This document shows positions 6,101-55,235 of a stretch of 64,000 nt of DNA, piece by piece. The stretch spans positions 1 to 64,000 of the forward strand of contig JANYHL010000043.1 of NCBI GenBank assembly GCA_025359085.1, read 5' to 3'. The notes under the pieces were generated by a model. That model was not told the origin of the DNA, made no database searches, and saw only the letters and a program-made list of their open reading frames with translations. This DNA is from Gammaproteobacteria bacterium (GTDB lineage Bacteria > Pseudomonadota > Gammaproteobacteria > Burkholderiales > Burkholderiaceae_C). Each line of letters begins with the position of its first letter. The first letter of the stretch is position 1. The translations under genes and the position numbers were made by a program.

Positions 6101-9100
6101 GCCGGGCAACGATGTTGAGCGTGCGTCTGAGGCGCCCGGCGTGACCTCGTCCACCGTAGCGCGCACCAAATATGTCGCACTGACTTCATTGACCCCATGC
6201 ACGCCCCCCATCGCCGCCGCGTAGTCGCGCAAAGCCTTCCCCGTATGCGAAGTCGGATGCTGCCGAACATCGTCCGGCGTGCCGAAAGCGACCACTTCGC
6301 CCCCCGCTTCGCCGCCTTCGGGCCCGAGGTCAATCAGCCAGTCACTGGCCCGGATCACATCCAGGTTGTGCTCGATCACGATCAAGGAATGCCCAACATC
6401 CAACAGCTTGCGCAAGGCGCGCATCAGCTTGGCAATATCGTCGAAATGCAGGCCGGTGGTGGGCTCATCGAACATGAACAAGGTGCCGCGTTTGGCGACG
6501 GCCTGGCGGCTGGCGGTGCTGCTTTTCGCAGCTTCGGCCAGGAAGCCAGCCAGCTTCAGGCGCTGCGCTTCGCCCCCGCTGAGCGTGGGCACCGGCTGGC
6601 CCAGTTTCACGTACTCCAGGCCCACATCCAATATGGGCTGCAGCGCACGGATGACGTCGCGGTCATGTGCAAAAAGAATAGCAGCTTCGCTGACGGTGAG
6701 GTTCAGCACGTCGGCCACGTTGAGGTGTCTGACGGTTGTGCTACCGTCCGCGCTCACCGGCCGCTCAATCGTGATCTCCAGAATTTCAGGCCGATAGCGT
6801 TTGCCATCACAGTCCGGGCAACGCAGATACACGTCGCTCAAGAACTGCATCTCCACATGCTCAAAGCCGGAACCACCGCAGGTGGGGCAGCGGCCGTCGC
6901 CATTGTTGAAGCTGAATTTGGTCGCGGTATAGCCGCGCTGGCGGGACAAGGGCGCATTGGCAAAAATCTCGCGCAGGGTATCCCAGGCGCCGACATAACT
7001 GACCGGGTTGGAGCGTGCCGTTTTACCGATCGGCGACTGGTCCACAAACACCACATCACTGAGCTGCTCCGCGCCCAGCAGGCGCTCAAAAACGCCCGGC
7101 GCCTCGGACGACTTGCCAAAGTGACGTTTAAGCGCCGGCGCCAGAATGTCCTGGATCAGGGTCGATTTGCCGGAGCCGCTGACACCGGTGACGCATACCA
7201 GACGCTGCAGCGGAAACTCGACGCTGACGTTCTTCAGGTTGTGCTCACGCGCGCCTTCCAGGATCAGACGCGGCGTGTTGGCCGCCACCAGCCGCTGCAA
7301 GCCCAGGCCGACCTGCTTGCGCCCGCCCAGGTAGGCGCCAGTCAGGGTGTCGGCGTGGCGCAAGTCTGCCGTGGAGCCGTCAAACACAATTTGTCCGCCG
7401 CGCTCGCCCGGGCCCGGGCCCATGTCTATCATGCGATCGGCCGCCAGCATCACCGCCGGGTCGTGCTCCACCACCACCAGCGTGTTGCCGGCGTCGCGCA
7501 GGCGCTGCATGGCCACAATGATGCGGTGCATGTCGCGCGGATGCAGGCCGATGCTGGGCTCGTCGAGCACAAACAGCGTGTTCACCAGCGAGGTGCCCAG
7601 AGCGGTGGTGAGGTTGATGCGCTGCACCTCGCCACCGCTGAGGGTGCGGCTTTGACGGTCGAGCGTCAGGTAGCCGATGCCGACCTCGCACAGGTATTTC
7701 AGGCGGGTGGTGATTTCGTCCAGCAAGAGCTTGAGCGTCTTGAGATCAACCTCAGAAGTAGGCATGACCGGGACGGCCCCGGCTTGGCTTGGGGTATTGG
7801 GGGGTGACGATGTTGAGCTTGCGTCTGAGGAGCCCCCCGATACCCCAAGCCGAGCCTGCAGCGCATCAAAAAAGCGCCGCAACTTATCAAGCGGCAAAAG
7901 CATCAAATCATGCAGACACAACCCCGGCAGCGCCTCCAGCTGGGCACGCGACCATTTGACGCCGGTGGGCATAAAACGCTGCGGCGGCGCCAGCACCGCG
8001 TCAGCATCGGCCTGTGAGCCGATGCGCCACAGCAGGCTCTCGGTCTTCAACCGTGCACCGCCGCAATCCGGACACGGCGTGTAGCTGCGGTACTTGGACA
8101 GCAGCACCCGGATGTGCATTTTGTAGGACTTGGTTTCCAGGTACTCAAAGAAACGCTTGATGCCAAACCAATGCTGGTTCCACTTGCCGTTCCAGTGGGG
8201 CGAACCATGAATCACCCAATATTGCTGCTCGGGCGTGAGCTTGCACCAGGGGGTGTCGCGCGGAATGCCCGCCGCCTCGGCATGGCGCATCAAATCGTCC
8301 TGCGCCTCTTGCCAGGCGGGAGTCTGCATCGGCTTGACGGCACCGGCACGCAGGGTCAGCTTGTCATTGGGGATCACCAAGCCGTAATCGACCCCGATGA
8401 CCCGGCCAAAACCGCGGCAGGTGTCACAGGCGCCGACCGCGGAATTGAAAGAAAACATCGACGCGATCGGGTCGGTATAGCGCAAGTTGCTCTCGGGACA
8501 ATGCAGGCCGGTGGAAAACTGCCATATCTCGGGGACCGAGTTTGCTATTGAATCAGGAGCTTCTTGCGCTTGTTCTACGGGGGCTAGAGCCTCATTTGAT
8601 ACATAAACATTGATCCGGCCGCTGCCGTGCTTGAGCGCCACCTCAATCGCCTCCAGCACGCGCGCGCGCTCAGCGCTGCGCAGCCGGAAGCGGTCCGCCA
8701 CCACGTCCAGCACCTTGCGCTTTGATAGCGGGGCGGCGGCGCTGGGGTCAGCGTCCAAACCGCTGCTGCTCTTTTTGCTGACGCGTTGGCTGCGCCCCGA
8801 AGGGGGAGCCGACCCCACCTCCACTTCGCGCTCAGCCTGCACTTTGGTAAAGCCGCTGACCGACAGCCATTGCGCCACTTCTTCCGGTGTGGCACTGGCC
8901 GGCAACTCCACTGGAAACGTCACCGCCAGACGTGGATCAGCCGGGCCGGATCGCTCCCATAACTGCGCGTAAATCGACTCCGGCGAGTCATGTCGCACCG
9001 CTTGCGCCGTGTTGCGATCAAACAATAACCCAGCGCGCGCAAACAACAGCTTCAAATGGTCATTGAGCTCGGTCATGGTCCCCACCGTCGAACGGCTGGA

Positions 9101-9382
9101 GCGCACCGGGTTGGTCTGGTCAATCGCGATCGCGGGCGGCACGCCTTCGACCTTGTCCACGGCAGGCTTGTCCATGCGGTCCAGAAACTGGCGCGCGTAG
9201 GCGGAAAAGGTTTCCACATAGCGGCGCTGGCCTTCGGCAAACAAGGTGTCGAACACCAAGCTCGACTTGCCTGAACCGCTCGGCCCGGTCACCACCGTGA
9301 GCTCGCCGGTGCGAATGTCGAGGTCCAGGTTTTTGAGGTTGTGCTGGCGTGCGCCGCGAATGCGGATAATTCCCTGGGTCAT
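3113..9382 (-). CDS. uvrA: Tandem (double-length) excinuclease ABC subunit A
   Basis: A single open frame of 2089 residues holds two complete UvrA-like units, each with two ABC ATPase modules, so four nucleotide sites. Walker A motifs lie near residues 33 (GPSGSGKS), 734 (GVSGSGKS), 1137 and 1757; LSGGE signatures lie near 579, 934, 1531 and 1957. Paired Cys zinc modules are visible (for example CPTCGGSG...CPDCDGKRY and CAGCEGQG...CETCKGARF). UvrA recognises helix-distorting DNA damage and loads UvrB; normally two ~940-residue chains dimerise, so this chain may fold as a covalent dimer. The joins and loops contain at least five extra Ser/Ala/Pro-rich insertions made by short palindromic repeats. 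A separate normal uvrA may exist elsewhere. Confidence 0.93.
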   Translation of the reverse strand: MTQGIIRIRGARQHNLKNLDLDIRTGELTVVTGPSGSGKSSLVFDTLFAEGQRRYVETFSAYARQFLDRMDKPAVDKVEGVPPAIAIDQTNPVRSSRSTVGTMTELNDHLKLLFARAGLLFDRNTAQAVRHDSPESIYAQLWERSGPADPRLAVTFPVELPASATPEEVAQWLSVSGFTKVQAEREVEVGSAPPSGRSQRVSKKSSSGLDADPSAAAPLSKRKVLDVVADRFRLRSAERARVLEAIEVALKHGSGRINVYVSNEALAPVEQAQEAPDSIANSVPEIWQFSTGLHCPESNLRYTDPIASMFSFNSAVGACDTCRGFGRVIGVDYGLVIPNDKLTLRAGAVKPMQTPAWQEAQDDLMRHAEAAGIPRDTPWCKLTPEQQYWVIHGSPHWNGKWNQHWFGIKRFFEYLETKSYKMHIRVLLSKYRSYTPCPDCGGARLKTESLLWRIGSQADADAVLAPPQRFMPTGVKWSRAQLEALPGLCLHDLMLLPLDKLRRFFDALQARLGVSGGSSDASSTSSPPNTPSQAGAVPVMPTSEVDLKTLKLLLDEITTRLKYLCEVGIGYLTLDRQSRTLSGGEVQRINLTTALGTSLVNTLFVLDEPSIGLHPRDMHRIIVAMQRLRDAGNTLVVVEHDPAVMLAADRMIDMGPGPGERGGQIVFDGSTADLRHADTLTGAYLGGRKQVGLGLQRLVAANTPRLILEGAREHNLKNVSVEFPLQRLVCVTGVSGSGKSTLIQDILAPALKRHFGKSSEAPGVFERLLGAEQLSDVVFVDQSPIGKTARSNPVSYVGAWDTLREIFANAPLSRQRGYTATKFSFNNGDGRCPTCGGSGFEHVEMQFLSDVYLRCPDCDGKRYRPEILEITIERPVSADGSTTVRHLNVADVLNLTVSEAAILFAHDRDVIRALQPILDVGLEYVKLGQPVPTLSGGEAQRLKLAGFLAEAAKSSTASRQAVAKRGTLFMFDEPTTGLHFDDIAKLMRALRKLLDVGHSLIVIEHNLDVIRASDWLIDLGPEGGEAGGEVVAFGTPDDVRQHPTSHTGKALRDYAAAMGGVHGVNEVSATYLVRATVDEVTPGASDARSTSLPGATPSAAGGVVPADSIQIINAREHNLKSLSVNIPRGKFTVVTGVSGSGKSTLAFDILFNEGQRRYLESLNAYARSIVQPAGRPEVDAVYGIPPTVAIEQRLSRGGRKSTVGTTTEVWHFLRLLFVKLGTQHCIHDGTKVAPQTPDSIAAQLLKNFRGQHIGLLAPLVMNRKGVYTELADWARPRGFTHLRVDGNFLPTTAFPRIDRFKEHTIELPVLSLDVLPENEAQLRAALATALMQGKGVVHVLSNLGGLRAAMLAGTPTAQIGTLQAFSTLRACPVCSTSYAELDPRLFSYNSKHGWCPDCVGTGVRLTKEQRKVFDDSVKDDDNKGREQTFAEPEVEDLVDAACPSCQGTRLNATARAVKFGPAIGGVAITELARLSVTDLRQWVETLQAPGRMSRRETDIARDLVPEIKGRLEFLEQVGLGYLTLDRGAPTLSGGEAQRIRLAAQLGSNLQGVCYVLDEPTIGLHPRDNQILLGALQSLSDQGNTLVVVEHDEGTIRYADHIIDIGPSAGKRGGQLVAEGSVADIQGAAESQTGRYLLHAMKHPLKLRRPVLAYAAAEAGSPGASATSSTSLPGEPAPAAGLLSAKVLKGKRAKSTVVAAGVKGAGDDVELASEEPAPLTFAAGATYKWLSVNGASLHNLQHVTADVPLSRLVAITGVSGSGKSTLARDVLLANVHTAVQKRSTKAGRDALAAGEQIPWTGCESVTGFETVDRVLEVDQTPIGKTPRSCPATYIGFWDIIRKLFADTLEAKARGYAANRFSFNTGEGRCAGCEGQGIRTIAMSFLPDVKVLCETCKGARFNPETLAVTWRGKNIGDVLQMEVDEAVQFFAAMPNISHPLQLLKDVGLGYLTLGQPSPTLSGGEAQRLKLVTELSKVRDDITRRGQKAPHTLYVLDEPTVGLHMADVEKLIKVLHRLVDGGHSVVVIEHDLDVIAEADWVIDLGPDGGNAGGRVVAATTPEGVVALGTPTGVALAAVLGRSLATVPEPETA
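4231..4280 (-). repeat. Family B hairpin repeat, copy 1 (inverted, in uvrA)
   Basis: Arms AAGGGGCGGG and CCCGCCCCCTT enclose the family B loop in reverse orientation (CTCAGACGCAAGCTCAACAT). It is translated within the second UvrA unit as a DDVELASEEP linker. It is the only one of the four copies in this orientation. Confidence 0.75.
4354..4414 (+). repeat. Family B hairpin repeat, copy 2 (in uvrA)
   Basis: Seventeen-base arms (4354-4370 and 4397-4414) are almost perfectly complementary and flank the loop AACGATGTTGAGCTAGTCGC. The arms differ in sequence from those of the other copies, while the loop is nearly the same. It is read as a SATSSTSLPG linker in UvrA. Confidence 0.8.
6100..6143 (+). 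repeat. Family B hairpin repeat, copy 3 (in uvrA)
   Basis: Short arms GCGCCGGGC and GCCCGGCGT flank the loop AACGATGTTGAGCGTGCGTC. It lies at the junction between the two UvrA units and encodes SDARSTSLPG in the same frame as copies 2 and 4. Confidence 0.75.
7781..7856 (+). repeat. Family B hairpin repeat, copy 4 (in uvrA)
   Basis: About 24-base arms (7781-7804 and 7833-7856) pair with only two mismatches around the loop GACGATGTTGAGCTTGCGTC. It lies in the first UvrA unit and is read as a GGSSDASSTSSP segment just before the helix preceding the first signature motif. Confidence 0.8.
8541..8606 (+). repeat. Family A repeat copy A1 (in uvrA)
   Basis: Forward copy running from TTTGCTATTGAATCAGGAGC through GGGGGCTAGAGCCTCATTTG. 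It is translated on the minus strand as NEALAPVEQAQEAPDSIAN within UvrA and matches the frame used by other reverse-read copies. Confidence 0.75.
8722..8827 (-). repeat. GC-rich insertion in uvrA (family C-like)
   Basis: A stretch containing GGCTGCGCCCCGAAGGGGG and a GGGGCGGCGGC segment encodes about 35 extra residues between the EREVEVG and LDVVADRF blocks of UvrA, which are close together in ordinary UvrA. The element resembles the insertion in the carboxylase alpha gene at 15587-15683, but I could not define common ends. Confidence 0.4.
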
Positions 9383-11295: not shown

Positions 11296-12051
11296 TCACG
11301 CCGCAGCCAGGGCCAGCCGCTGCTCAATCTGCGCCCAGATGATGCGCTTGGTGGCGTCATCCGCCGTGCTCCACTGAATAATCTCGCCCAGCGTGCGCCA
11401 GCAGCCTTCGCACAGACCGGTGGCTTCGCTCATGCGGCACACCGACACACAGGGCGAAGGTACATTTTGGCCTGTAGCCCTTGCCAGTATTACGCGAGCT
11501 GCTATTGATTCAAGAGCGATTGACTCCCGCTCACCGGCCGGGGCCTGCACCACAGCGACCACCGGGGCGCCGGTCCACCGAGCCAGCTCTTGGGGACTCA
11601 GTTGGAACACGGCGTGCGGGTGCCCCGCCGCCGCCCAGATGTCTTGAAAGCGAAACAGCGTCTGGTCGATCAGTGTCACTGCATCAGAGGCGTGCGCAAT
11701 CGGTGCCACGCCGCCAATCGAGAACCCGGTCTTGGCCTTGACGAAAGCGGCATCCGCGCGCCCCAGTGGCCCCAACAGCGCGGCGACCCGGGCCTCGTCC
11801 ACGCGCTGGTCGCCGGCCGTCACCACCAGCACCGCCGCATCGTCCAGCAGCCGCCTGAAGATGATGCTCTTGGCGATCTGTCCGACCCCCACACCGAGTG
11901 CATCCGCTGCCTGTTGTGCCGTCCGCGCGGCGTCACTCAGCATCAAAGGCGCATGGGGGTGGCCCTGCGCCTGCAGCGCAGCAGCCACGCGCTGCACAGC
12001 GGCAGACCGGGGTTGAGCCGACACTTCGTCACCCTGGCGCAGCCGGTTCAT
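11296..12051 (-). CDS. YbaK/ProX-like aminoacyl-tRNA deacylase fused to a DUF1289 domain
   Basis: Protein of 251 residues from the ATG at 12051. Residues about 10-165 form a YbaK-type editing domain (AKSIIFRR, VKAKTGFSIGGVAPIAH), a family that hydrolyses mischarged tRNA. Residues about 200-250 are a DUF1289 zinc-finger-like domain with the Cys pattern SPCVSVCRMSEATGLCEGCW. The linker between them is encoded by a family A repeat (ESIAARVILARATGQN). The start lies one base after the HMG-CoA lyase stop, and the end overlaps a possible start of the DsbA-family gene, so the three are probably cotranscribed. The function of the fusion is inferred only. Confidence 0.85.
   Translation of the reverse strand: MNRLRQGDEVSAQPRSAAVQRVAAALQAQGHPHAPLMLSDAARTAQQAADALGVGVGQIAKSIIFRRLLDDAAVLVVTAGDQRVDEARVAALLGPLGRADAAFVKAKTGFSIGGVAPIAHASDAVTLIDQTLFRFQDIWAAAGHPHAVFQLSPQELARWTGAPVVAVVQAPAGERESIALESIAARVILARATGQNVPSPCVSVCRMSEATGLCEGCWRTLGEIIQWSTADDATKRIIWAQIEQRLALAAA
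11462..11516 (-). repeat. Family A repeat copy A2 (in YbaK-DUF1289 gene)
   Basis: Reverse-oriented copy. On the minus strand it reads AATCAATAGCAGCTCGCGTA and ends GGGCTACAGGCCAAAAT. It is translated in the forward sense as ESIAARVILARATGQN and forms the linker between the two domains of the host protein. Confidence 0.8.
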
Positions 12052-12052
12052 G

Positions 12053-12961
12053 TCAAGCCTGCCGTTTGTTGAACAAGGCTTTGGCGGCACGCGAGTTGGT
12101 GGACCGGCCCAGGAAGTCGCTGATGAACTGACCGGCGTCAATCAACAGGTCCAGGTCAATGCCGGTCTTGATGCCCATGCCGTGCAGCAAATAAACCACG
12201 TCTTCAGAGGCCACATTGCCGGTGGCGCCCTTGGCGTAAGGGCAGCCGCCCAGGCCCGCCACCGAGGTGTCAAACTGCCAGACCCCCATTTGCAGGCAGA
12301 TCAAGGTGTTGGCCAGCGCCTGACCGTAGGTGTCGTGGAAGTGACCGGACACATCGTTGATATCGAAATGCTTGAGTGTGGCCTCCATGGCGCGGCGCAC
12401 CTTGAGCGGCGTGCCCACGCCAATGGTGTCGGCCACGCCCACATGCTGCACGCCAATGCCCTGCATCAAGCCCGCCAGGTAGCTCACGCGCTCAGGCGCA
12501 ATGTCGCCCTCGTACGGGCAACCCACGGTGCAACTCATGGCGCCACGCACATAGATACCGGCGGCGCGCGCGGCGTCCACCACCGGGGCAAAGCGCTCGA
12601 TGCTCTCGGCAATGCTGCAGTTGATGTTTTTCTGGCTGAAGGCCTCGCTGGCGGACGCAAACACCACGATTTCATCCGGCTTGGCGGTCAACGCTGCCGC
12701 AAAACCCTGCAGATTGGGCGTGAGCACCGAGTAGCGCACGCCCTGCAGGCGGTTGATGCCCGCCATGACATCCAGGTTGTCAGCCATTTGCGGCACCCAT
12801 TTGGGCGACACAAAGCTGGTGACTTCAATCTCTGTCAGGCCGGCGGCCTGCAGCCGGTGCACCAACTCGATCTTGATCGCCGTGGGCACGGGGGTTTTCT
12901 CGTTTTGCAGGCCGTCACGCGGGCCGACTTCGACTAATTTGACGCGGGAGGGAATTGACAT
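12053..12961 (-). CDS. hmgL: Hydroxymethylglutaryl-CoA lyase
   Basis: Protein of 302 residues that would split 3-hydroxy-3-methylglutaryl-CoA into acetoacetate and acetyl-CoA, the last step of leucine catabolism. The TIM-barrel start EVGPRDGLQN (11-20, with Arg15 and Asp16) is intact. The metal-binding GHFHDTYGQ (206-214) and the signature SVAGLGGCPYAKGA with catalytic Cys240 are also present. Length is normal. It leads a minus-strand run with the YbaK-DUF1289 gene and is separated from the carboxylase genes by two small plus-strand genes and ghrA. In the liu nomenclature it would be liuE. Confidence 0.95.
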   Translation of the reverse strand: MSIPSRVKLVEVGPRDGLQNEKTPVPTAIKIELVHRLQAAGLTEIEVTSFVSPKWVPQMADNLDVMAGINRLQGVRYSVLTPNLQGFAAALTAKPDEIVVFASASEAFSQKNINCSIAESIERFAPVVDAARAAGIYVRGAMSCTVGCPYEGDIAPERVSYLAGLMQGIGVQHVGVADTIGVGTPLKVRRAMEATLKHFDINDVSGHFHDTYGQALANTLICLQMGVWQFDTSVAGLGGCPYAKGATGNVASEDVVYLLHGMGIKTGIDLDLLIDAGQFISDFLGRSTNSRAAKALFNKRQA

Positions 12962-14416: not shown

Positions 14417-16525
14417 TCATGGCAGCACCAGCTTGAGCAGCTCGGCTCCTTCCACCACCTGGTCGCCGGGCGCGTAGAGCAACTCGGCCACCACGCCGTC
14501 CGTCGGGGCGGCAATGGTGTGCTCCATCTTCATGGCGTCCATCACCGCCAGCGGCTGGCCCTTGCTGACCTTGTCACCGGCTTTGACCGCAAACGACACC
14601 ACCTTGCCCGGCATCGGCGCGGTCAGGCGGCCGCCTTCAAGCTGACTGTCCCCGGCGTGCGCAAGCGCGTCGATTGCTATTATTTGTATAGCGCCTTGCG
14701 AAGTAAAGACGTGGGCTACAGCGTCTTTTTGATAAACGCTGACGATCTGGCGTTGCGCCGCAAAGCGCACATCGATGCCGTGCGTTAGCGCCGTGAACGA
14801 GAAGCCACCGACCTCGCCCGCGACCGCCAGTTGCAGCGCACCGTCGTGCAAAGTAGTCAGTTGCACGACCTGCAGCTGGCCCTGAAACTCGTAGTCAAAA
14901 CGGCGCGAACTGGGGCCATGCGAGCGCCAACCATCTTGTCGCGACCACGGATCGAGCCAAACAGCGCGCTGGGCCACCTGCGCTTCCGCCGCTTTTTCCT
15001 GCAGCAGCGTATGCGCAACGGCGCCCGCCACGGCCAGGCTCAAGCCCACCTTTTCCTGCTTGAACAACACCGCTTCTTCACGCGCAATCAGCCCGGTGTC
15101 CAGATCGGCCTGGGCAAACGAGCGGCTTTGCACCACGTTGCGCAAAAACTGCACGTTGGTGCTCAAGCCGACGATGTGGGTCTGGGCCAGCGCGGTGTCC
15201 AAGCGTGACAGCGCCTGCTCCCGGGTCTCGCCGTGCACGATCAGCTTGGCCACCATCGAGTCGTAAAACGGCGAAATCACATCGCCCTCGCGCACGCCGG
15301 CGTCGACCCGGACGCCCCCGCTGTTGCGGGCAAAGGTAACGCACTCCGGCAAGCCGTAAACATGCAATGTGCCGGTGGCGGGCAAGAAGTTGTTGTCCGG
15401 GTTTTCGGCGCAAATGCGGGCTTCGATCGCGTGACCGGTAATTTTCAGTTGATCTTGCGCCAGCGGCAGCGGCTCGCCACTCGCCACCCGCAGCTGCCAC
15501 TCCACCAGATCCTGCCCGGTGATGGCTTCGGTGACGGGATGCTCCACCTGCAGCCGGGTGTTCATTTCCATGAAGAAAAAGCGCATGGCCCCCGCGCTTG
15601 CCACTTTGTGTGCTGCGCTGCCCCCCGAGGGGACTGCGCCACCTTGGGGCGGCCCGGCGGTGTCGCTTTCATCGTTGTTTCCAAGTTGCTCGACGATGAA
15701 CTCGACCGTGCCAGCGCCGACGTAGTCCACGGCCCGGGCCGCGGCCACGGCGGCTTCGCCAATTTGCCGCCGGAATTCCTCGGTGATGCCGGGCGCCGGC
15801 GCTTCTTCCAGCACTTTTTGATGGCGGCGCTGCACCGAGCAATCGCGTTCAAACAGGTACACATAATTGCCCAGCGTGTCGCCAAACACCTGAATCTCGA
15901 TGTGGCGCGGACGCTGCACGTATTTTTCAATCAGCACCGCGTCATTGCCAAAGCTGTTGACCGCCTCGCGCCTGCAGGAGGCCAGCGCCGCCGCAAAATC
16001 CGCCGCGTGATCCACCACGCGCATGCCCTTGCCGCCGCCGCCGGCACTGGCCTTGATCAGCACCGGGTAACCGATGGCGTCGGCCTCGCGCTGCAACAAG
16101 GCCGGGTCCTGGTCGGCACCGTGGTAGCCGGGCACCAACGGCACACCGGCCAGCCCCATCAGGCGCTTGGACTCGGCCTTCAGCCCCATCGCCAGAATGG
16201 CGGACGCCGGCGGGCCAATGAACACCAGGCCGGCCGCGGCACAGGCGCGGGCAAACTCTTCGTTTTCACTCAAAAAACCATAGCCGGGGTGAATGGCTTG
16301 CGCCCCGGTGGCCTGGGCCGCCTCAATGATCTTTTCCCAGCGCAAGTAGCTGTCCTTGGGCGCGCTGCCCCCGATGTAAACGGCCTCGTCGCACACGCTG
16401 ACGTGTTTGGCGTTGGCATCGGCGTCGGAATAGACCGCCACCGTTTTGATGGCCATGCGCCGCGCGGTGGCCGCCACGCGGCAAGCGATTTCACCCCGAT
16501 TGGCAATCAGAATTTTGTTAAACAT
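14417..16525 (-). CDS. liuD: Methylcrotonyl-CoA carboxylase alpha subunit (biotin carboxylase plus BCCP)
   Basis: Protein of 702 residues. The N-terminal part is a biotin carboxylase (start FNKILIANRGEIACRVAATA, ATP-grasp GGGGKGMRVV, MEMNTRLQVEHPVTE). The C-terminal ~75 residues are a biotinyl domain with AMKMEH carrying the biotin lysine. It would carboxylate biotin with ATP and bicarbonate for the beta subunit, turning 3-methylcrotonyl-CoA into 3-methylglutaconyl-CoA. The assignment over propionyl- or acetyl-CoA carboxylase rests on the adjoining hydratase and beta subunit. Two repeat-made insertions are unusual: about 33 residues inside the ATP-grasp core near 281-313, and a family A copy just ahead of the biotinyl domain. 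Confidence 0.92.
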   Translation of the reverse strand: MFNKILIANRGEIACRVAATARRMAIKTVAVYSDADANAKHVSVCDEAVYIGGSAPKDSYLRWEKIIEAAQATGAQAIHPGYGFLSENEEFARACAAAGLVFIGPPASAILAMGLKAESKRLMGLAGVPLVPGYHGADQDPALLQREADAIGYPVLIKASAGGGGKGMRVVDHAADFAAALASCRREAVNSFGNDAVLIEKYVQRPRHIEIQVFGDTLGNYVYLFERDCSVQRRHQKVLEEAPAPGITEEFRRQIGEAAVAAARAVDYVGAGTVEFIVEQLGNNDESDTAGPPQGGAVPSGGSAAHKVASAGAMRFFFMEMNTRLQVEHPVTEAITGQDLVEWQLRVASGEPLPLAQDQLKITGHAIEARICAENPDNNFLPATGTLHVYGLPECVTFARNSGGVRVDAGVREGDVISPFYDSMVAKLIVHGETREQALSRLDTALAQTHIVGLSTNVQFLRNVVQSRSFAQADLDTGLIAREEAVLFKQEKVGLSLAVAGAVAHTLLQEKAAEAQVAQRAVWLDPWSRQDGWRSHGPSSRRFDYEFQGQLQVVQLTTLHDGALQLAVAGEVGGFSFTALTHGIDVRFAAQRQIVSVYQKDAVAHVFTSQGAIQIIAIDALAHAGDSQLEGGRLTAPMPGKVVSFAVKAGDKVSKGQPLAVMDAMKMEHTIAAPTDGVVAELLYAPGDQVVEGAELLKLVLP
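14672..14738 (+). repeat. Family A repeat copy A3 (in liuD)
   Basis: Forward copy containing GATTGCTATTATTTGTATAG and GACGTGGGCTACAGCGTC. It is translated on the minus strand as DAVAHVFTSQGAIQIIAI, the same frame as the other reverse-read copies, and lies in the segment linking the carboxylase to the biotinyl domain. Confidence 0.75.
15587..15683. repeat. GC-rich palindromic insertion in the ATP-grasp domain of liuD (family C-like)
   Basis: Contains CTGCCCCCCGAGGGGACTGC followed by CCTTGGGGCGGCCCGG, which can fold back on itself. It encodes about 33 Gly/Ala/Ser/Pro residues between VEFIVEQ and RFFFMEMNTR, two blocks nearly contiguous in other biotin carboxylases. The ends are approximate. 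Confidence 0.55.
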
Positions 16526-17379: not shown

Positions 17380-19002
<1,623 letters not shown>

Positions 19003-22465: not shown

Positions 22466-22535
22466 AAATAGCTATATATTTAGTAGCTTGTAGCGCTTGC
22501 TACACGCGGGCTGCGGGTCAATTTGTTATAAATTT
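22466..22535 (+). repeat. Family A repeat copy A5 (intergenic)
   Basis: Forward copy with AGTAGCTTGTAGCGCTTGCT followed by ACACGCGGGCTGCGGGTCAA. It lies 20 bases past the acyl-CoA dehydrogenase stop and may act as its 3' hairpin. Confidence 0.75.
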
Positions 22536-22554
22536 CGGTCTGCCCAGCAAGGGA

Positions 22555-23685: not shown

Positions 23686-23708
23686 GGGCAAAGCCCGAAA
23701 GCGTCCAT

Positions 23709-26790: not shown

Positions 26791-26798
26791 TGGGTTCG

Positions 26799-26833
26799 CC
26801 CTCGTGTCCAGTGCGCGAGCAGCTACTAAAAAA
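26799..26833 (-). repeat. Family A repeat fragment beside the REP-like element
   Basis: On the minus strand it reads TTTAGTAGCTGCTCGCGCAC then TGGACACGAGGGC, matching the first half of family A; the second half is missing where the REP-like element begins. Confidence 0.5.
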
Positions 26834-26843
26834 ACGAGCGTCA

Positions 26844-28691: not shown

Positions 28692-28703
28692 GGTTGCTCG
28701 CCT

Positions 28704-28763
28704 TTTAATAGCTGCTAGCGCAATATAGACGCGGGCTAGAGGTCAATTTCATCAATAATTTAA
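28704..28763 (+). repeat. Family A repeat copy A8 (between can and aceK)
   Basis: The best-preserved copy: AATAGCTGCTAGCGCAATAT, then AGACGCGGGCTAGAGGTCAA. It overlaps the carbonic anhydrase stop by a few bases. Confidence 0.85.
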
Positions 28764-37569: not shown

Positions 37570-37920
37570 ATGTGGAACGCAATGAAAACCAAATCCCTTG
37601 CAGCGGCGGTGGTGGTCACCAGCCTGCTCCATGGCTCACTACTTTGGAAGATGAATGATGTGGCCACTGAAGCGGCGTCCGTGACGTCGCAGACCAGCGC
37701 CAACAGCAGGTTGGCTGGCTCGACAGAATCCAGTTCGGAAATCCGCTATGTGACGCTTGAACCGGTCCTCATCGTCGGCAGATACAAGCCTTTCCTGCCG
37801 GATCAGATCGGGACCCAGGCCGATATTTTGTCATTAACCTCCCAAGGTCAGTGCATCACCGGTCGCGCCAACCCAGTCACCGCGAATAAGCAGCAAAACG
37901 GCACACTGGATTATTGCTAA
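37570..37920 (+). CDS. Small exported or membrane-anchored hypothetical protein
   Basis: Protein of 116 residues. The ATG at 37570 is chosen because AAGGAG lies seven bases ahead. Residues 4-22 (AMKTKSLAAAVVVTSLLHG) form a signal peptide or membrane anchor. The rest is Ser/Thr/Ala-rich and then contains VTLEPVLIVGRYKPFLPD and two Cys residues near the C-terminus (GQCITG and the final DYC), which could pair in the periplasm. I do not recognise the family. It lies beside a LytTR-type response regulator gene that ends 54 bases away on the opposite strand. Confidence 0.6.
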   Translation: MWNAMKTKSLAAAVVVTSLLHGSLLWKMNDVATEAASVTSQTSANSRLAGSTESSSEIRYVTLEPVLIVGRYKPFLPDQIGTQADILSLTSQGQCITGRANPVTANKQQNGTLDYC

Positions 37921-37973
37921 GCGTTTCCGACGCCACACCCACCGCTGTCGAAGCGGCCGGGTTCGGACCATGC

Positions 37974-38747: not shown

Positions 38748-38748
38748 T

Positions 38749-39828: not shown

Positions 39829-40134
39829 AGGGTCAAGGTCAGCACGACACTTCCCCCAAGAACGATGGCTGCGGGCATGTCATTCTCCAAAATGGTGGTG
39901 TTCGGCCAAGGTCACACCGACGCAAAAATTGGATTCCAAAAATATAAAAAATTCAACTGTGAACGGATGGTTGATATGCCAACAGGGTCAATGCCACAAA
40001 AAACAGGGCAACCCAGGGGGGACAGGACACGTCGGCGACCGAGCTCACCCGCAGCCAGTATGCCTCTCAGGGCGGATGGGATTTTCAGTTTAGACTGACA
40101 AATATTTTTCAAAATTGCTAACCAGGAGGCGATC
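39829..40134. other. Divergent spacer between the sensor kinase and isochorismatase-like genes
   Basis: These 306 bases hold no convincing gene. The end carries a strong ribosome binding site AGGAGG seven bases before the ATG at 40135. The segment 39925-39965 is AT-rich and may hold promoters for one or both genes, but no clear hexamers were chosen. Confidence 0.4.
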
Positions 40135-40761
40135 ATGCGCATTCAATTCCCGATTCTGGCCCTTACTTTTATCGTTGTCGCGCAGTCGGCGACGGCGGCG
40201 AACATCATCGAGTTGTGGGACCAGGTGAAGGCACCGCCGGCGCCCAGTCTCTCGGCGCCCACCGTGAAAGCCAACGACACAGCCCTGCTCCTCCTCGACA
40301 TAGAGGCATTGACCTGCAATCAGGAACGTCGCCCTCGTTGCGTCGAGGCCGTGCCGGCGATGGCGATGTTCCTGGCGAAGGCAAGAAACGCGCACATGCC
40401 GGTCATGTACAGCAACACCGCTGGCGGATCGCGAGAAACCATGTTGCCGCAGGTGGCGCCAAGGGACGACGAAGCCATCGTCAAAGCGAGCGTCAACAAG
40501 TTCTTCGGGACCCAGCTCGACGAATACCTGAAGAGCAAAAATGTCAAAACCGTGATTATTTGCGGCACCAGCGCCTCCGGCGCTGCGCTCCACACCGCGA
40601 CCGGTGCCGCCCAGTATGGCTACAAGATCGTGTTGCCGGTGGATTGCGTGCCCGGCAACAGTTTGTATGAGGAGCAGGCCAGCGTTTGGAGCCTGATCAA
40701 CGGCCCCGGCACGGCCGGGGCCATGACCGCTACCACGCTCGACGCGATCAAGATCGAATAG
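40135..40761 (+). CDS. Exported isochorismatase-fold protein lacking the catalytic Cys
   Basis: Protein of 208 residues with a clear signal peptide (1-22, ending ATAA), unusual since most of this cysteine-hydrolase family is cytoplasmic. The family's Asp (Asp55 in LLLLDIE) and Lys (Lys122 in VNKFFGT) are present. The expected nucleophilic Cys in the G-x2-T-x2-C-V block aligns with Ala150 (CGTSASGAALHTA). It may bind a ligand without hydrolysing it, or use different chemistry. It is followed 110 bases later by the molybdopterin oxidoreductase gene. Confidence 0.82.
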   Translation: MRIQFPILALTFIVVAQSATAANIIELWDQVKAPPAPSLSAPTVKANDTALLLLDIEALTCNQERRPRCVEAVPAMAMFLAKARNAHMPVMYSNTAGGSRETMLPQVAPRDDEAIVKASVNKFFGTQLDEYLKSKNVKTVIICGTSASGAALHTATGAAQYGYKIVLPVDCVPGNSLYEEQASVWSLINGPGTAGAMTATTLDAIKIE

Positions 40762-40871
40762 CACGGCTTGCGTCCTGGGCTAGCTCGGGCTGCGTTTGTC
40801 GTGTCCCCCATGTTCTGGACAAGCCGCTTCAGCCTGTGACTCAATGCCCCATTTCTTCAACGAGGCCTGCC

Positions 40872-43088
40872 ATGACGGACACCACCCACTACCGAATTTG
40901 CCCCCTGTGCGAAGCCTGCTGCGGGCTGGAGATCAAGGTGCGGGACGGCGTGGTCACCAGCATCAAGGGTGACGCCCGTGATGTCCTCAGCCAAGGTTAC
41001 GTCTGCCCCAAAGCAGTGGCGCTGAAAGACCTGCACGACGACCCGGACCGGCTGCGTACGCCGCTGATCAAGCGCCGCGGCCAGCACGTAGCCGCCACTT
41101 GGGAGGAAGCATTTGCCGAGATTGCACGCCGCTTGCCGCCGTTGCAAGCCCAGTACGGTCGCCAGGCAGTTGCGGTGGCCGTGGGCAACCCCACGGTCCA
41201 CAAATACGGCTTGCTGAGCTACTTTCCAAGACTGGCGCGCGCTCTGGGCACGCGCAACGTGTTTTCAGCGTCCAGCCTGGACCAGGTGCCCAAGCAACTG
41301 GCCTGCGGCTTGATGTTTGGCCACTGGATGACGGTGCCGCTGCCCGACATCACGCGCACGCAGTTGCTGCTGGTGATCGGCGCCAACCCGCTGGCCAGCA
41401 ATGGCAGCATGTGGACCGTGCCCGACTTTCGCGGCAAAGCCAAAGCCCTGCAAGCCCGCGGTGGCCGCCTGGTGGTGATTGACCCCAGGCGCACCGAGAC
41501 CGCCGCCATCGCGGATGCGCACCACTTCATTCGTCCCGGCGCCGACGTATTTTTGTTGGCGGCCATGGTCAACACCTTGTTTGCCAACCAGTGGGTGCGA
41601 TTGGGCGCGGTGGCCGACTGGGTCCAGGGCGTTGAAGCGGTGCGGCAAGCGGTGGCCGCCTTCACGCCTGCGGCGGTGGCGGCGCGTTGCGGCATGGCGG
41701 CAGACACCATTGTTGAACTGACGCGTGAACTGGCCCACACCGAGCGCGCCGCCGTCTACGGCCGCATTGGCACCTGCACGCAAACCTTTGGCACGCTGGC
41801 CAGTTGGCTGGTGGATGCGCTCAATGTGCTCACCGGCCACCTGGATGCACCGGGCGGCGCCATGTTCACCCAAGCTGCCGCCTTTGCCAGCAACACGTCG
41901 GGCGCCAGCGGCACAGGGCGCGGCGTGGCCACCGGCCGCCACCGCTCGCGTGTGAGCGGCGCGCCCGAGGTGATGGGCGAGCTGCCGATGACCTGCCTGG
42001 CCGAAGAAATTGAGACCGCGGGGGTCGATCAAGTTCGCGCCCTGATCACGGTGGCCACCAACCCGGTACTTTCTGCGCCCAACGGGCCACGCCTGGCGAA
42101 AGCGTTTCAGGCGCTGGACTTCATGGTCAGCGTGGACATCTACCTGAACGAGACGACGCGCCATGCGGATGTGATTTTGCCCGGTATGTCGCCCCTGCAA
42201 GACGACCACTTTGACGTGTCGTTTCCGCAGTTGTCATGGCGCAACCACGCCCGTTACAGCCCCGCCGTGCTGCCGGTCGAAGATCGACCAGCCGAATGGC
42301 AAATCCTGCTCAAACTGGCCGCCATCGCGCAAGGTCAACCGGCTGACGTGGATGTGAATGCGCTGGATGACGCGCAGTTTGCGCAAGATGCACAACGTTT
42401 GTTCGGCGTGCAAGCCGTTGCGGTGATGCATGCCAGCGCGCCGCTGCGCGGGCCGCAGCGCCTGCTCGATGTGGCCTTGCGCACGGGGCCCTATGGCGAT
42501 GCTTTTGGCCTGAAGCCCGAGGGCTTGACGCTGACCAAGGTGGCGGCCGCCAACGCCAGCGGTGGCATTGACCTGGGCGAGTTGCAGCCGCGTGTGCCAG
42601 CGCTGTTGCGCACCCCCAGCGGCAAGATTGAGCTGGCCCCGCCCCTGTTGCTGGCCGACCTGCCGCGCGCCTGGGCCGACCTGCACAGCACGGCGCCCGA
42701 TCTGGTCGTCATCGGGCGGCGCGATGTGCGCAGCAACAACAGCTGGATGCACAACCTGCCGACCCTGGCCAAGGGGCCGTTTCGCTGTACCGCCTTGCTG
42801 CACCCGGCTGATGCGGCGCGCCTGCAACTCGCCGACGGCGCGGTGGCGCGCATCAGCAGCGGCGCGGGCAGCATTGAGGCGCAGGTGCAAATCAGCACGG
42901 ACATGATGCCCGGCGTGGTCAGCCTGCCGCACGGCTGGGGCCACGACTTGCCCGGCACTCAATTGACGCTGGCCGCCCAGCGCCCGGGTGCCAACCTGAA
43001 TGTGCTGCTGGGCGATCAGGCGCGCGATCCGCTCTCCGGCAACGCCGTACTGAGCGGGGTGGCGATCAGCATGATGGCCGTGGCTTGA
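40872..43088 (+). CDS. Molybdopterin-dependent oxidoreductase with N-terminal Fe-S cluster
   Basis: Protein of 738 residues of the DMSO reductase superfamily. The [4Fe-4S] ligands are Cys10, Cys13, Cys17 and Cys45 (CPLCEACC...VCPK). Later blocks include LVIGANPLASNGSMWTVPDF, VVIDPRRTETAAIADAHHFI and LPHGWGHDLPG, which bind the bis-MGD cofactor. There is no Tat signal, so it is cytoplasmic. The metal ligand could not be assigned; the expected position reads SSLDQVPKQLA without Cys. No partner subunits are adjacent. Substrate unknown. Confidence 0.88.
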   Translation: MTDTTHYRICPLCEACCGLEIKVRDGVVTSIKGDARDVLSQGYVCPKAVALKDLHDDPDRLRTPLIKRRGQHVAATWEEAFAEIARRLPPLQAQYGRQAVAVAVGNPTVHKYGLLSYFPRLARALGTRNVFSASSLDQVPKQLACGLMFGHWMTVPLPDITRTQLLLVIGANPLASNGSMWTVPDFRGKAKALQARGGRLVVIDPRRTETAAIADAHHFIRPGADVFLLAAMVNTLFANQWVRLGAVADWVQGVEAVRQAVAAFTPAAVAARCGMAADTIVELTRELAHTERAAVYGRIGTCTQTFGTLASWLVDALNVLTGHLDAPGGAMFTQAAAFASNTSGASGTGRGVATGRHRSRVSGAPEVMGELPMTCLAEEIETAGVDQVRALITVATNPVLSAPNGPRLAKAFQALDFMVSVDIYLNETTRHADVILPGMSPLQDDHFDVSFPQLSWRNHARYSPAVLPVEDRPAEWQILLKLAAIAQGQPADVDVNALDDAQFAQDAQRLFGVQAVAVMHASAPLRGPQRLLDVALRTGPYGDAFGLKPEGLTLTKVAAANASGGIDLGELQPRVPALLRTPSGKIELAPPLLLADLPRAWADLHSTAPDLVVIGRRDVRSNNSWMHNLPTLAKGPFRCTALLHPADAARLQLADGAVARISSGAGSIEAQVQISTDMMPGVVSLPHGWGHDLPGTQLTLAAQRPGANLNVLLGDQARDPLSGNAVLSGVAISMMAVA

Positions 43089-43257
43089 GTAGCGAGCGTT
43101 CGAACTCGATGTGCTCGATCAGGCCAAACAGGCGTTCGTCAATGTCCAGAAAAGACATGTGGCAGCCAAAGCCGTCGCGGCCCTCATGCGCCGGGACGCA
43201 AACCCATCCACGGTCAGGCGCCGACGACGTCGTATTGCACCCCCAAACATCAGGCAA
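43066..43257 (-). CDS. Possible small protein or gene remnant
   Basis: An open frame of 63 residues starting at TTG. It has host-like codon use in its second half (FLDIDERLFGLIEHIEFERS), which suggests real coding history. It overlaps the end of the molybdopterin gene by 23 bases on the other strand. The start is weak, there is no familiar domain, and a family A repeat lies just upstream. It may be the C-terminal remnant of a longer gene cut by the repeat. Confidence 0.3.
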   Translation of the reverse strand: MPDVWGCNTTSSAPDRGWVCVPAHEGRDGFGCHMSFLDIDERLFGLIEHIEFERSLLKPRPSC

Positions 43258-43308
43258 GGTGCCCCCGCTGTGCGTCGCTTGTCGGTGTATTTTTGGTCGT
43301 TTTTATAT

Positions 43309-43360
43309 GAAAATGATAGCTACTTACCCATACTAATCGGGGGCTATGGCCTGATTTCTT
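43309..43360 (+). repeat. Family A repeat copy A9 (intergenic)
   Basis: Forward copy with AAAATGATAGCTACTTACCC and then CGGGGGCTATGGCCTGATTT. It lies in the spacer between the molybdopterin gene and the ferritin-like gene. Apart from this repeat and the doubtful frame at 43066, the spacer 43089-43407 holds nothing recognisable. Confidence 0.75.
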
Positions 43361-50893: not shown

Positions 50894-51019
50894 AATACTG
50901 TTCAGATAACGCCCTATCACCGTTCGGGCTGAGCCGCCTGTCCTGAGCTCTGTCGAAGGGGTCGAAGCCTGGCAGCCCTTCGACAGGCTCAGGGCGAACG
51001 GGCTTAAGTGAACAGCATT
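50894..51019. repeat. REP-like palindromic element with terminal inverted repeats, copy 2
   Basis: Shares the core CCGTTCGGGCTGAG and CTTCGACAGGCTCAGGGCGA with copy 1, plus outer ends AATACTGTTCA and TGAACAGCATT. It has an extra partial duplication in the left arm (50933-50968). It lies between the LysR start and the fmt stop. Confidence 0.85.
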
Positions 51020-51023
51020 GATG

Positions 51024-51992
51024 CTAGCCGTGCGGGTCAAACACCATGCCGGGCTGCACATCAAAGCCGCGCAAGAATTCGGCCACGCCCAGTCGTTTGC
51101 CGCCGGAGCGCTGCAACTGCGTGATAGTTACTATTGATTTCATAGCTGCCACCGCAATACCAACGGGGTCTACGGCCAGAATTGATCCAAATTCTGCAGC
51201 AACAGGCGGTTTTTCAGTCGAAAGCTCGGCCAGCCAGATTTTGAGCGTTTCCCCATTCAACACTGCGCTGGCGCCCGGGAATGGATTGAAGGCACGGATG
51301 CGTTGCGTGATCAGCGCCGCACTTTGCGTCCAGTCAATCGCCGCCTCGTGTTTTTCAATTTTGTGCGCATAAGTCACGCCCTCAGCGGCCTGTGCCAGCG
51401 GCTGCAAACGGCCTTGCGCGGCCAAGTCCAGCGCTTGCCGCATCAGTTGCCCCCCCAACTCGGCCAGCCGGTCCTGCAAGCTGCCGGTGGTATCCGCAGC
51501 CGTAATCGGGATCGCCTGCGCCAGCAGCATGGCGCCGGTGTCGAGCCCGGCGTCCATTTGCATGATGGTGACGCCGGTTTGCGCGTCGCCCGCCTCAACG
51601 GCGCGGTGAATCGGTGCCGCGCCACGCCAGCGCGGCAGCAGTGACGCGTGAATATTGAAGCAGCCACGGACGGTCACCGCCAGCACCCACGGCGGCAGGA
51701 TCAGGCCGTAGGCCGCCACCACCATGGCATCAGCCTGCGCCGCCGCCAGCGCCTGCTGCGCGGCCCTTGCCGCCTCAGGGTATTTGCCATCCAGGCGCAA
51801 GCTGCGCGGTTGCGCCAGCGCCAGCCCGTGCTCCAGCGCAAACTGCTTGACGGCACTGGCCTGCAGCTTCAGGCCGCGCCCGGCGGGACGGTCCGGCTGC
51901 GTCAGCACCAGCGCAATTTCATGCCCGCTGGCGTGCAACTGGGCCAGCGCGACGCGGGCAAATTCGGGCGTACCGGCAAAGACCAACCTCAC
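51024..51992 (-). CDS. fmt: Methionyl-tRNA formyltransferase
   Basis: Protein of 322 residues from a GTG start that overlaps the def stop. N-terminal [15 protein letters not shown], the catalytic block [20 protein letters not shown] and the C-terminal OB-like domain are present. It formylates initiator Met-tRNA with 10-formyl-THF. The C-terminal domain carries a family A repeat translated as [19 protein letters not shown], near residues 267-286. Partnered with def as in most bacteria. Confidence 0.96.
51134..51191 (+). repeat. Family A repeat copy A10 (in fmt)
   Basis: Forward copy with TTGATTTCATAGCTGCCACC and CGGGGTCTACGGCCAGAATT. It is translated on the minus strand in the same frame as copies A1, A3, A4 and A11. 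Confidence 0.7.
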
Positions 51993-54005: not shown

Positions 54006-55235
54006 GTGGAACGCGACGAACTGGCCGCCTGGCTGCGCCTGACGCTCAGCAGCGGCATCGGCAATGATAGCGCCCGCAAACTGCTGGCCGCGTTTGGCCT
54101 GCCCGCGGCGGTGTTTGAGCAGTCGCCCACGGCGCTGCGGCAGGTGGTGAGCGAAAGACAGGCCACGGCCCTGCGCAACGAGCCGCCGGAGTTGGCGGCG
54201 CTGCTGGCGCAGACCTGGGCCTGGCTGCAGGACACCGGTGTCGGCAGCGCCCGGCGCCAGATCGTGGTGCTGGGCGATGCCAACTACCCGGCGTCGCTGC
54301 TCAACATCGAAGACCCGCCGCTGATGCTGTACCTGCTGGGAGGCGGTGAATTTATATCAAATCAGGCTGTAGCCCCCATACACCATGGGCAGACAGCTAT
54401 CAATTTAATTGACAACCCGCTTTCCTTGTGTCTGGTCAACAGCCTTGCCGTGGTTGGCAGTCGCAACCCGACGCCGCAAGGCGCCGCCAACGCGCGCCAG
54501 TTTTCCAAGGCGCTCGGGCTGGCCGGCTTGACCATCGTCAGCGGACTGGCGCTGGGCGTGGACGGCGCGGCGCACGAAGGCGCGCTAGACAGTCTGACGC
54601 CGGGTTCTGATCGGCTCGCCACGGTGGCCGTGGTCGGCACCGGGCTGGACCGGGTCTACCCGAAAAGACACCTGGCGCTGGCGCACCGCATCGCCCAGAA
54701 CGGCTTGCTGATCAGCGAGTACCCATTGGGCACGCCGCCGATGCCCGCTAATTTTCCCAGACGCAACCGGCTGATTGCTGGGCTGGCGCAGGCCACCCTG
54801 GTGGTCGAAGCCGCCCTGAAGTCCGGCTCCCTGATCACCGCGCGGCTCAGCGCCGAACAAGGCAAAGACGTTTTTGCCATCCCCGGCTCGATTCATTCCA
54901 CGCAGGCGCGCGGTTGCCATGCGCTCATCAAGCAAGGCGCCAAGCTGGTGGAGTCGGCGCAGGATGTGCTGGAAGAAATGAAAATCAACCTCGGCCTGCC
55001 AACAGCTCTCAATTTAATAGCTGATGACGCTTGTTTCACGGGCACTAGCGGCTGTTTTGGCACGCAAGCGGCGTTGCTCGACGCGATCGGCTTCGACCCG
55101 GTCGGGCTGGATGCCTTGCAATCACGCTGCGGCATCGACACCGCCGCTCTGCAAGCGCAGTTGATGTCGCTGGAGCTCGACGGTCTGCTGGTGCGCTTGC
55201 CCGGTGGTCTGTTCCAGCGCCTGAGCCCGGGATAA
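54006..55235 (+). CDS. dprA: DNA-processing protein DprA
   Basis: Protein of 409 residues from a GTG start. An N-terminal SAM-like region precedes the Rossmann-type domain (SLAVVGSRNPTPQG, VSGLALGVDGAAHEGAL, YPLGTPPMPANFPRRNRLIAGL) and a C-terminal winged-helix domain. It loads RecA on incoming single strands in natural transformation. Two family A repeats are translated inside: FISNQAVAPIHHGQTAINLI just before the Rossmann domain, and LNLIADDACFTGTSGCFGT between the Rossmann and winged-helix domains. Both lie at domain borders, so function could survive. Confidence 0.94.
   Translation: MERDELAAWLRLTLSSGIGNDSARKLLAAFGLPAAVFEQSPTALRQVVSERQATALRNEPPELAALLAQTWAWLQDTGVGSARRQIVVLGDANYPASLLNIEDPPLMLYLLGGGEFISNQAVAPIHHGQTAINLIDNPLSLCLVNSLAVVGSRNPTPQGAANARQFSKALGLAGLTIVSGLALGVDGAAHEGALDSLTPGSDRLATVAVVGTGLDRVYPKRHLALAHRIAQNGLLISEYPLGTPPMPANFPRRNRLIAGLAQATLVVEAALKSGSLITARLSAEQGKDVFAIPGSIHSTQARGCHALIKQGAKLVESAQDVLEEMKINLGLPTALNLIADDACFTGTSGCFGTQAALLDAIGFDPVGLDALQSRCGIDTAALQAQLMSLELDGLLVRLPGGLFQRLSPG
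54350..54412 (-). repeat. Family A repeat copy A11 (first in dprA)
   Basis: Reverse copy reading ATCAGGCTGTAGCCCCCATA then GACAGCTATCAATTTAATTG on the plus strand. It is translated as NQAVAPIHHGQTAINLIDN, which aligns with the UvrA product of copy A1. Confidence 0.75.
55004..55060 (+). repeat. Family A repeat copy A12 (second in dprA)
   Basis: Forward copy with AATTTAATAGCTGATGACGC and ACGGGCACTAGCGGCTGTTT. It is translated in the forward sense, the same frame as copy A2. Confidence 0.7.

What the first reader, a model, noticed from the sequence alone, without database searches (positions are those of the whole stretch)
8541..55060. Family A: a ~60-bp dispersed repeat that enters conserved genes in only two reading frames
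Twelve copies and one fragment share an AT-rich end with ATAGCTGCTAGCGC, a variable middle, and GCGGGCTAGAGG..AATTT. Positions: 8541, 11462, 14672, 18134, 22466, 23709, 25400, 28704, 43309, 51134, 54350, 55004; fragment 26799. Seven lie inside uvrA, the YbaK-DUF1289 gene, liuD, liuB, fmt and dprA (twice). Five are read in reverse and give aligned peptides ([94 protein letters not shown]). Two are read forward (ESIAARVILARATGQN, LNLIADDACFTGTSGCFG). The other frames would meet TAG stops. This resembles the translated palindromic elements of Rickettsia and suggests an active, selected insertion process.
Basis: seen in the sequence. Interest (0 to 1): 0.82.

Follow-up and report, generated by a model that had tools for sequence, protein, structure and literature searches.

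The report
Genome-wide DNA motif evolving inside genes
In a Rhodoferax-like bacterium a degenerate DNA motif of about 65 letters recurs roughly every 5,000 letters, also inside ordinary enzyme genes; in most genes tested it has not been inserted but has grown in place by changing the gene's own letters, which suggests a DNA recognition sequence, perhaps for taking up DNA, that our searches did not find described.

Summary
The repeat is real and the two-frame rule holds here. A two-round profile finds 86 copies in 446 kb of this genome (about 1 per 5 kb). Of 35 counted inside genes, 33 sit in two of six frames.

The insertion reading (Rickettsia-like element) fails for 7 of 10 genic sites tested: Fmt, LiuB, LiuD, DprA site 2, NAD kinase, NAD synthase and an SDR align to homologues with mostly 0-7 residues of length change. 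UvrA and DprA site 1 are longer where the motif is present; the YbaK-DUF1289 site varies without tracking it. Copies show no clear sign of recent duplication, and spacing is more even than random. All 35 genic copies beat every synonymous recoding tried, so the constraint is on DNA.

The state is nearly all-or-none per genome: Fmt carries the motif in 29 of 35 motif-rich and 0 of 35 motif-poor genomes; DprA in 17 of 18 versus 0 of 12 congeners.

Best explanation: an unusually long uptake-sequence-like motif spread by biased DNA uptake. The recogniser is unknown; a chromosome-protein site array is the main rival.

The parts
8541..8610 (+). motif copy inside uvrA (3113-9382, - strand), frame R2
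   Evidence: R2 54.8 bits; four congeners without the motif have a loop 33-60 bp shorter
11463..11521 (-). motif copy inside the YbaK/tRNA_edit-DUF1289 gene (11296-12141, - strand), frame F2
   Evidence: 38.1 bits; Pfam; length varies among congeners without tracking the motif
14672..14735 (+). motif copy inside liuD (14417-16525, - strand), frame R2
   Evidence: 36.3 bits; same length (74) in 4 of 4 congeners aligned, three of which lack most motif letters
18127..18197 (+). motif copy inside liuB (17380-19002, - strand), frame R2
   Evidence: 40.0 bits; same length (81) in 8 of 8 congeners and gapless to PDB 3u9r and 9tps
22467..22537 (+). motif copy, intergenic
   Evidence: 48.5 bits
23708..23779 (-). 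motif copy, intergenic (gap 23692-23796)
   Evidence: 48.3 bits
25397..25469 (-). motif copy filling the 68-bp intergenic gap 25391-25458
   Evidence: 50.6 bits; gap length
26798..26834 (-). weak fragment beside a REP-like hairpin, intergenic
   Evidence: 21.3 bits, model positions 11-47
28694..28762 (+). motif copy filling the 68-bp intergenic gap 28692-28759; also present at this place in G151
   Evidence: 47.4 bits; G151 67 bits at the same gap
43302..43359 (+). motif copy, intergenic
   Evidence: 34.5 bits
51126..51198 (+). motif copy inside fmt (51024-51992, - strand), frame R2, on a conserved stretch
   Evidence: 49.2 bits; gapless to E. coli Fmt 1fmt across the motif; 70-genome comparison
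54344..54409 (-). motif copy inside dprA (54006-55235, + strand), site 1, frame R2
   Evidence: 49.8 bits; motif in 17 of 18 rich and 0 of 12 poor congeners
55003..55072 (+). motif copy inside dprA, site 2, frame F2
   Evidence: 39.6 bits; motif in 11 of 18 rich and 0 of 12 poor congeners

Best explanation
Family A is not, in the main, a mobile element but a long, degenerate, asymmetric DNA recognition motif (about 65 bp; consensus TTGCTATTAATTTAATAGCTGCTTACGCAttaTTgACGgGGGCTAGAGCCcaATTTGATATAAAT). It builds up in place: existing intergenic or coding DNA is remodelled towards the motif by substitutions and small indels, at synonymous positions where possible and at the cost of amino acids where not. 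Genic copies therefore occur where the native protein tolerates the two peptide readings. Shown here: DNA-level constraint, in-place origin in most genic sites tested, no clear copy ancestry, even spacing, and a nearly all-or-none state per genome that switched repeatedly. Inferred: the force is a molecular drive of the uptake-sequence kind. A cell-surface DNA receptor prefers motif-bearing DNA, so motif-improving alleles spread by transformation and recombination; lineages that lose the receptor lose their motifs.
For: (1) In place: LiuB and Fmt align without gap across the motif to PDB homologues; NAD kinase differs by at most 1 residue, NAD synthase by 1-3, an SDR by 4; LiuD has equal length in 4 of 4 congeners; DprA site 2 has similar length in most of 29 congeners. 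(2) DNA level: 35 of 35 genic copies score above all 300 synonymous recodings of the same peptide, median z 6.9. (3) All-or-none: best fmt score is positive in 29 of 35 motif-rich genomes and 0 of 35 motif-poor ones, Fisher p 8e-14 without correction for kinship; dprA site 1 17 of 18 vs 0 of 12, site 2 11 of 18 vs 0 of 12. Fmt uses two alternative places: + strand from about nt 756 (23 genomes) or - strand near nt 798 on a conserved stretch (5 genomes). (4) No excess of close pairs over a first-order profile. (5) Even spacing: CV 0.69 vs 0.92-1.03 simulated; 3 gaps under 1 kb vs 12-19 expected. (6) Both orientations used, 45/41. (7) Repeated switching: fewest changes 15 on the best Fmt tree (bootstrap 13-16, 2 forced by well-supported branches) and 7 on the DprA tree (3 forced); one rich clade in the genus rejected, AU p 5e-5. 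(8) Known uptake sequences share in-gene location, a coding-orientation bias, even spacing and a proposed origin by point mutation rather than insertion (passages of PMC2346458, and PMC1939737). ComEC is present in the own genome.
Against: No receptor and no uptake experiment. ComEC is near-universal in motif-poor genomes too (114 of 120 in all), is not found in motif-rich G042 (100% complete) and is split into three pieces in motif-rich G003. For the ComEA model no genome of 120 had a match above the cut-off, so it was uninformative. Known uptake sequences are about 10 bp; this is about 65. At three places (UvrA, DprA site 1, the thiolase-aceK gap) motif-bearing genomes are longer, by 33-60 bp at UvrA, up to about 60 bp at DprA and about 50-75 bp at the gap compared with two of three motif-poor genomes; the third, G131, has a longer gap. 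This looks like insertion, or deletion after loss. Motif-poor genomes show no intermediate scores in dprA and fmt, although decay might be expected to leave some. Six of 35 rich genomes lack the motif in fmt, one of the 29 positives (G012) has it elsewhere in the gene, and G050 and G003 score only 2.4 and 7.9 bits. Test (2) is inflated because copies were found by their score. Against a model of independent columns, nearest-neighbour identity (p 0.035) and the closest pair (0 of 200 simulations) are slightly too high.
Confidence: 0.45

Rival explanations
1. Binding-site array for a chromosome-organising or DNA-maintenance protein: about 600 evenly spaced long sites, maintained by selection on cell function rather than by biased uptake, and present only in genomes that encode the protein.
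For: Even spacing, length and multi-box architecture, DNA-level constraint, all-or-none presence, no dependence on ComEC seen.
Against: No orientation preference (45/41). Gain or loss at many loci with a fewest count of 7 switches inside one genus (3 forced) is odd for an essential chromosome function. No candidate protein was sought or found.
Confidence: 0.25
2. Inserted, translated mobile element of the Rickettsia palindromic-element type: random insertion of about 60 bp, with only stop-free frames surviving, later decay in some lineages.
For: Two-frame bias; loops or gaps longer where the motif is present at UvrA, DprA site 1 and one intergenic site.
Against: Little or no length change in LiuB, LiuD, Fmt, NAD kinase, NAD synthase, an SDR and DprA site 2; no clear recent copies; spacing repulsion; R2 is favoured beyond the stop filter (23:1 over R0 vs 11:13 expected, p 3e-4).
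Confidence: 0.15
3. REP-like element moved or templated by the single-copy RAYT (Y1 transposase), for example by conversion of partly matching sites by an excised single strand.
For: The own RAYT gene has a copy on both sides, the 3' one supplying its stop codon; a few other genera also carry a copy beside it.
Against: A RAYT homologue is in 114 of 120 genomes, motif-rich or not; among motif-rich genomes G040 (74% complete) has no match and G095 only one of 41% identity. In other genera its flanks share other repeats. Only 7 of the 30 RAYT loci examined (up to 3.7 kb each) hold any match at E<=1. Templated conversion would not keep gene-specific residues.
Confidence: 0.08

Closest known systems
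DNA uptake sequences of Pasteurellaceae (USS) and Neisseriaceae (DUS)
   Same: Hundreds of copies, many inside genes, coding-orientation bias, even spacing, origin proposed by point mutation in place, presence specific to a lineage (passages of PMC2346458, PMC1939737, PMC3630211).
   Different: About 65 bp and degenerate instead of about 10 bp and near-exact; different bacterial family; no receptor or uptake shown; some sites differ by tens of bp in length.
Rickettsia palindromic elements (RPE)
   Same: Short repeat read in frame within many unrelated genes, in few frames (recalled; RPE papers were seen only as a search listing).
   Different: RPE are insertions (recalled); here most genic copies tested have little or no length change, and no conserved RNA structure is supported.
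REP elements with RAYT transposase
   Same: Hundreds of short dispersed copies; one RAYT in this genome, flanked by two copies.
   Different: Many copies are genic, RAYT presence does not track the motif, and RAYT flanks in other genera share another repeat.
BRE, Betaproteobacterial repeat element (Hot et al. 2011, PMC3110155; passages, section 14)
   Same: Dispersed in Polaromonas, Rhodoferax and Delftia; some copies within coding sequences.
   Different: Bordetella BREs average 69% G+C and are about 90 bp; the 12 window copies of family A are 38-53% G+C. BRE's sequence is not in the text read, so this was not compared directly.

Membership tests
DNA uptake sequence (USS/DUS) | strong genomic over-representation | tested here: met
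   86 copies in 446 kb; matrix control 92 vs 1 vs 0
DNA uptake sequence (USS/DUS) | arises by point mutation in place rather than by insertion | tested here: inconclusive
   little or no length change at 7 of 10 genic sites tested (Fmt, LiuB, LiuD, NAD kinase, NAD synthase, SDR, DprA site 2); length differences at UvrA, DprA site 1, the YbaK-DUF1289 gene and one gap
DNA uptake sequence (USS/DUS) | short, near-exact core of about 10 bp | tested here: not met
   conserved positions spread over about 65 bp with a variable middle
DNA uptake sequence (USS/DUS) | preferential uptake and transformation by a dedicated receptor | not testable with these tools
   needs a strain; ComEC distribution not discriminating
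Rickettsia palindromic element | inserted into genes relative to orthologues | tested here: not met
   not met at 7 of 10 genic sites tested; UvrA, DprA site 1 and the YbaK-DUF1289 gene remain open
Rickettsia palindromic element | palindromic, RNA-foldable unit | tested here: not met
   pairing no better than shuffles and no covariation for the helices tried
REP/RAYT | element abundance tracks a cognate RAYT flanked by the element | tested here: not met
   RAYT homologue in 114 of 120 genomes, motif in 45 of 120; flanking copies do occur in the own genome
BRE | sequence match to BRE | not tested
   BRE sequence not in the text read; base composition differs

The most novel reading that the evidence does not exclude
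A new class of genome-wide signal: a roughly 65-bp DNA motif, switched on or off per lineage, that by drive or selection rewrites hundreds of loci in place, including conserved enzyme sequences, and whose recogniser (uptake receptor or chromosome protein) is unknown and unlike any described.
Probability: 0.4. Interest if true: 0.92.

Novelty: new variant of a known kind. Interest (0 to 1): 0.8.

Why it matters
If right, an environmental bacterial family outside the two classic ones (Neisseriaceae, Pasteurellaceae) carries its own, far longer sequence signal, perhaps for recognising its own DNA. It is a rare natural experiment: related genomes with and without the signal let one watch a DNA motif bend protein sequences in place, test molecular drive against selection, and look for the gene that switches it. 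It also warns that frame-restricted 'inserted peptides' seen in single genomes may be no insertions at all.

Tried and rejected
Insertion or translated mobile element: rejected as the general case (little or no length change in constrained genes), kept open for the length-variable sites. Recent transposition: not supported. Conserved RNA structure: no covariation and no Rfam match. RAYT as the driver: weak. Competence genes as a discriminating marker: ComEC is near-universal; the ComEA model matched mostly long frames that look like Tex by their length (recalled; no annotation call) and none above cut-off. Selection on the peptide alone: rejected by synonymous recoding, with the caveat that copies were found by score. 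Literature: the searches list no paper that I recognised as describing this motif; only open-licence PMC is held. For PMC3110155 I saw passages and section 14; for PMC2346458, PMC1939737 and PMC3630211 only passages; RPE papers only as a search listing.

Choices and dropped rows: five R2 hits under 16 bits that overlapped stronger hits or were short were dropped (93 rows, 91 after removing overlap duplicates, 86 kept). Fmt was read in all 35 motif-rich and in 35 of the 85 other genomes; DprA in the 30 genomes whose loci one search gave, own genome included. The four genes taken to the PDB from outside the window were picked from 20 Pfam-scanned genes because solved homologues were likely and, for two, because their peptides already looked native; for IspD/F the alignment shown did not reach the motif. 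An earlier count said 30 of 35 fmt positives; the recount is 29 of 35.
Full report
WHAT IS THERE. A covariance model from the 12 listed copies finds them all. In the own genome (G000, 3.16 Mb, 149 contigs) all 150 places scored, which is the cap, pass E<=0.001. In the window plus 20 stretches (446 kb) a second, sequence-only model gives 93 rows, 91 after removing overlap duplicates, and 86 after dropping five weak rows: 35 inside genes, 23 at gene edges, 28 intergenic, by gene calls from my own codon-usage script. That is about one per 5 kb, so about 600 genome-wide by extrapolation. A weight matrix made only from the 51 copies not counted as inside genes finds 92 places of 10 bits or more, against 1 in the reversed sequence and 0 in a Markov resample. 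The consensus has three TAGC/GCTA boxes, a GGGGCTA core and AT-rich ends, with a variable middle.

FRAMES. Of 35 genic copies 23 are in frame R2, 10 in F2, 1 in F1 and 1 in R0. Stop codons explain part of this: open frames among the 51 other copies are F0 6, F1 1, F2 21, R0 13, R1 3, R2 11. But 33 of 35 in F2+R2 is more than the 58% expected (p 2e-6), and R2 beats R0 23:1 where 11:13 is expected (p 3e-4). Other genera also use F0, in fmt.

NOT AN INSERTION IN MOST GENES. LiuB aligns without gap across the motif to PDB 9tps and 3u9r and Fmt to E. coli Fmt 1fmt. NAD kinase aligns without gap to 2an1 and with one residue at the edge to 4hao. NAD synthase is longer by 3 residues than 4f4h and by 1 than 5kha, and an SDR by 4 than 5va8. 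LiuD is longer by 7 residues than the P. aeruginosa subunit and by about 2 than another solved subunit at this place. An alignment for IspD/F was requested but did not show the motif part. In congeners the LiuD and LiuB sites have equal length in 4 of 4 and 8 of 8 genomes, with and without the motif. DprA site 2 has similar length in most of 29 congeners, with two clearly shorter. Against this, UvrA is 60 bp longer than in G131 and G120 and 45 and 33 bp longer than in G125 and G122. DprA site 1 is up to about 60 bp longer than in motif-less congeners, though two of these (G135, G122) keep a longer loop. The YbaK-DUF1289 site has flank gaps of 69 bp in the own genome, 83 in four congeners including motif-poor G122, and 6-54 in three others, so its length does not track the motif. 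The distance between the thiolase and aceK protein matches is 77-97 bp in motif-rich G129, G151, G143 and G123 but 22-28 bp in motif-poor G122 and G125, and 290 bp in motif-poor G131.

DNA LEVEL, NO CLEAR COPY ANCESTRY. Every one of the 35 genic copies scores above all 300 synonymous recodings of its own peptide (copies were found by score, which inflates this). Nearest-neighbour identity among the 86 copies is not above that of draws from a first-order profile (0.686 vs 0.698, p 0.95), but slightly above independent columns (0.681, p 0.035); no pair exceeds 82.2%, a maximum that is high against independent columns (0 of 200) and not against the first-order profile (p 0.075). Spacing is more even than random even when at most one copy per intergenic gap is allowed. 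Base-pairing tests do not exceed shuffles.

A STATE OF THE GENOME. In 200 genomes of the order 8 have a match; the 4 outside the family have 1 or 2. Fmt was read in all 35 rich and in 35 of the 85 other genomes. The best matrix score in fmt is positive in 29 of 35 rich genomes and in 0 of 35 poor ones. The motif sits on the + strand from about nt 756 in 23 genomes, changing the linker to EIDSxxR, on the - strand near nt 798 in 5, where conserved residues are changed, and elsewhere in G012. DprA site 1 carries the motif in 17 of 18 rich and 0 of 12 poor congeners read, at nt 342 in the 15 whose position was printed; site 2 in 11 of 18 and 0 of 12. Trees without the motif columns need at fewest 15 changes across the family (weakly supported tree, 2 forced by well-supported branches) and 7 in the genus (3 forced), where a single rich clade is rejected (AU p 5e-5).

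MECHANISM. In-place origin, DNA-level constraint, even spacing, coding bias and lineage-specific presence are the marks described for uptake sequences (passages). I therefore favour an uptake-type molecular drive, but this step is inferred. ComEC does not discriminate, is missing in motif-rich G042 and is in three pieces in G003. A site array for a chromosome protein remains the main rival.

ORGANISM. The named relatives found by DprA are Rhodoferax, other Comamonadaceae and unnamed MAGs; records nearest to the window's own genome may be left out of that list.

Noticed in passing
window 15584-15679 (inside liuD): A GC-rich repeat (77% G+C over 15586-15662) encodes about 32 extra residues (283-314) that the two PDB homologues aligned lack, so this one looks like a real in-frame insertion. 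Other copies at L038:1448-1523 and, inside a molybdopterin-binding gene, L047:1550-1622; many copies in congeners, those listed at 85-92% identity. Possibly the published BRE; not compared.
   Followed up: partly
window 26716-26792 and 50961-51020: REP-like hairpin repeat with CTTCGACAGGCTCAGGGCGAACGG, two copies 95% identical over 60 bp.
   Followed up: no
L053 1462-2166 (G000:C107:4418-5119): Single-copy RAYT gene flanked by two family A copies, the 3' one containing its stop codon; in many other genera GGGGTCAGATTCCAATTA-like and GGGGACA-like repeats lie beside it.
   Followed up: partly
L259, L261, L263, L264 (fmt of G042, G064, G072, G088): Fmt of four motif-rich genera has an extra stretch after residue ~107, a different in-frame insertion.
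   Followed up: no
window 28762-43302 and 55072-64000: Long stretches without the motif; ten proteins scanned there are ordinary metabolic, transport, signalling or unknown-function genes.
   Followed up: partly
window 24395-25390: N6/N4 DNA methylase gene directly beside a 68-bp gap filled by the motif.
   Followed up: no
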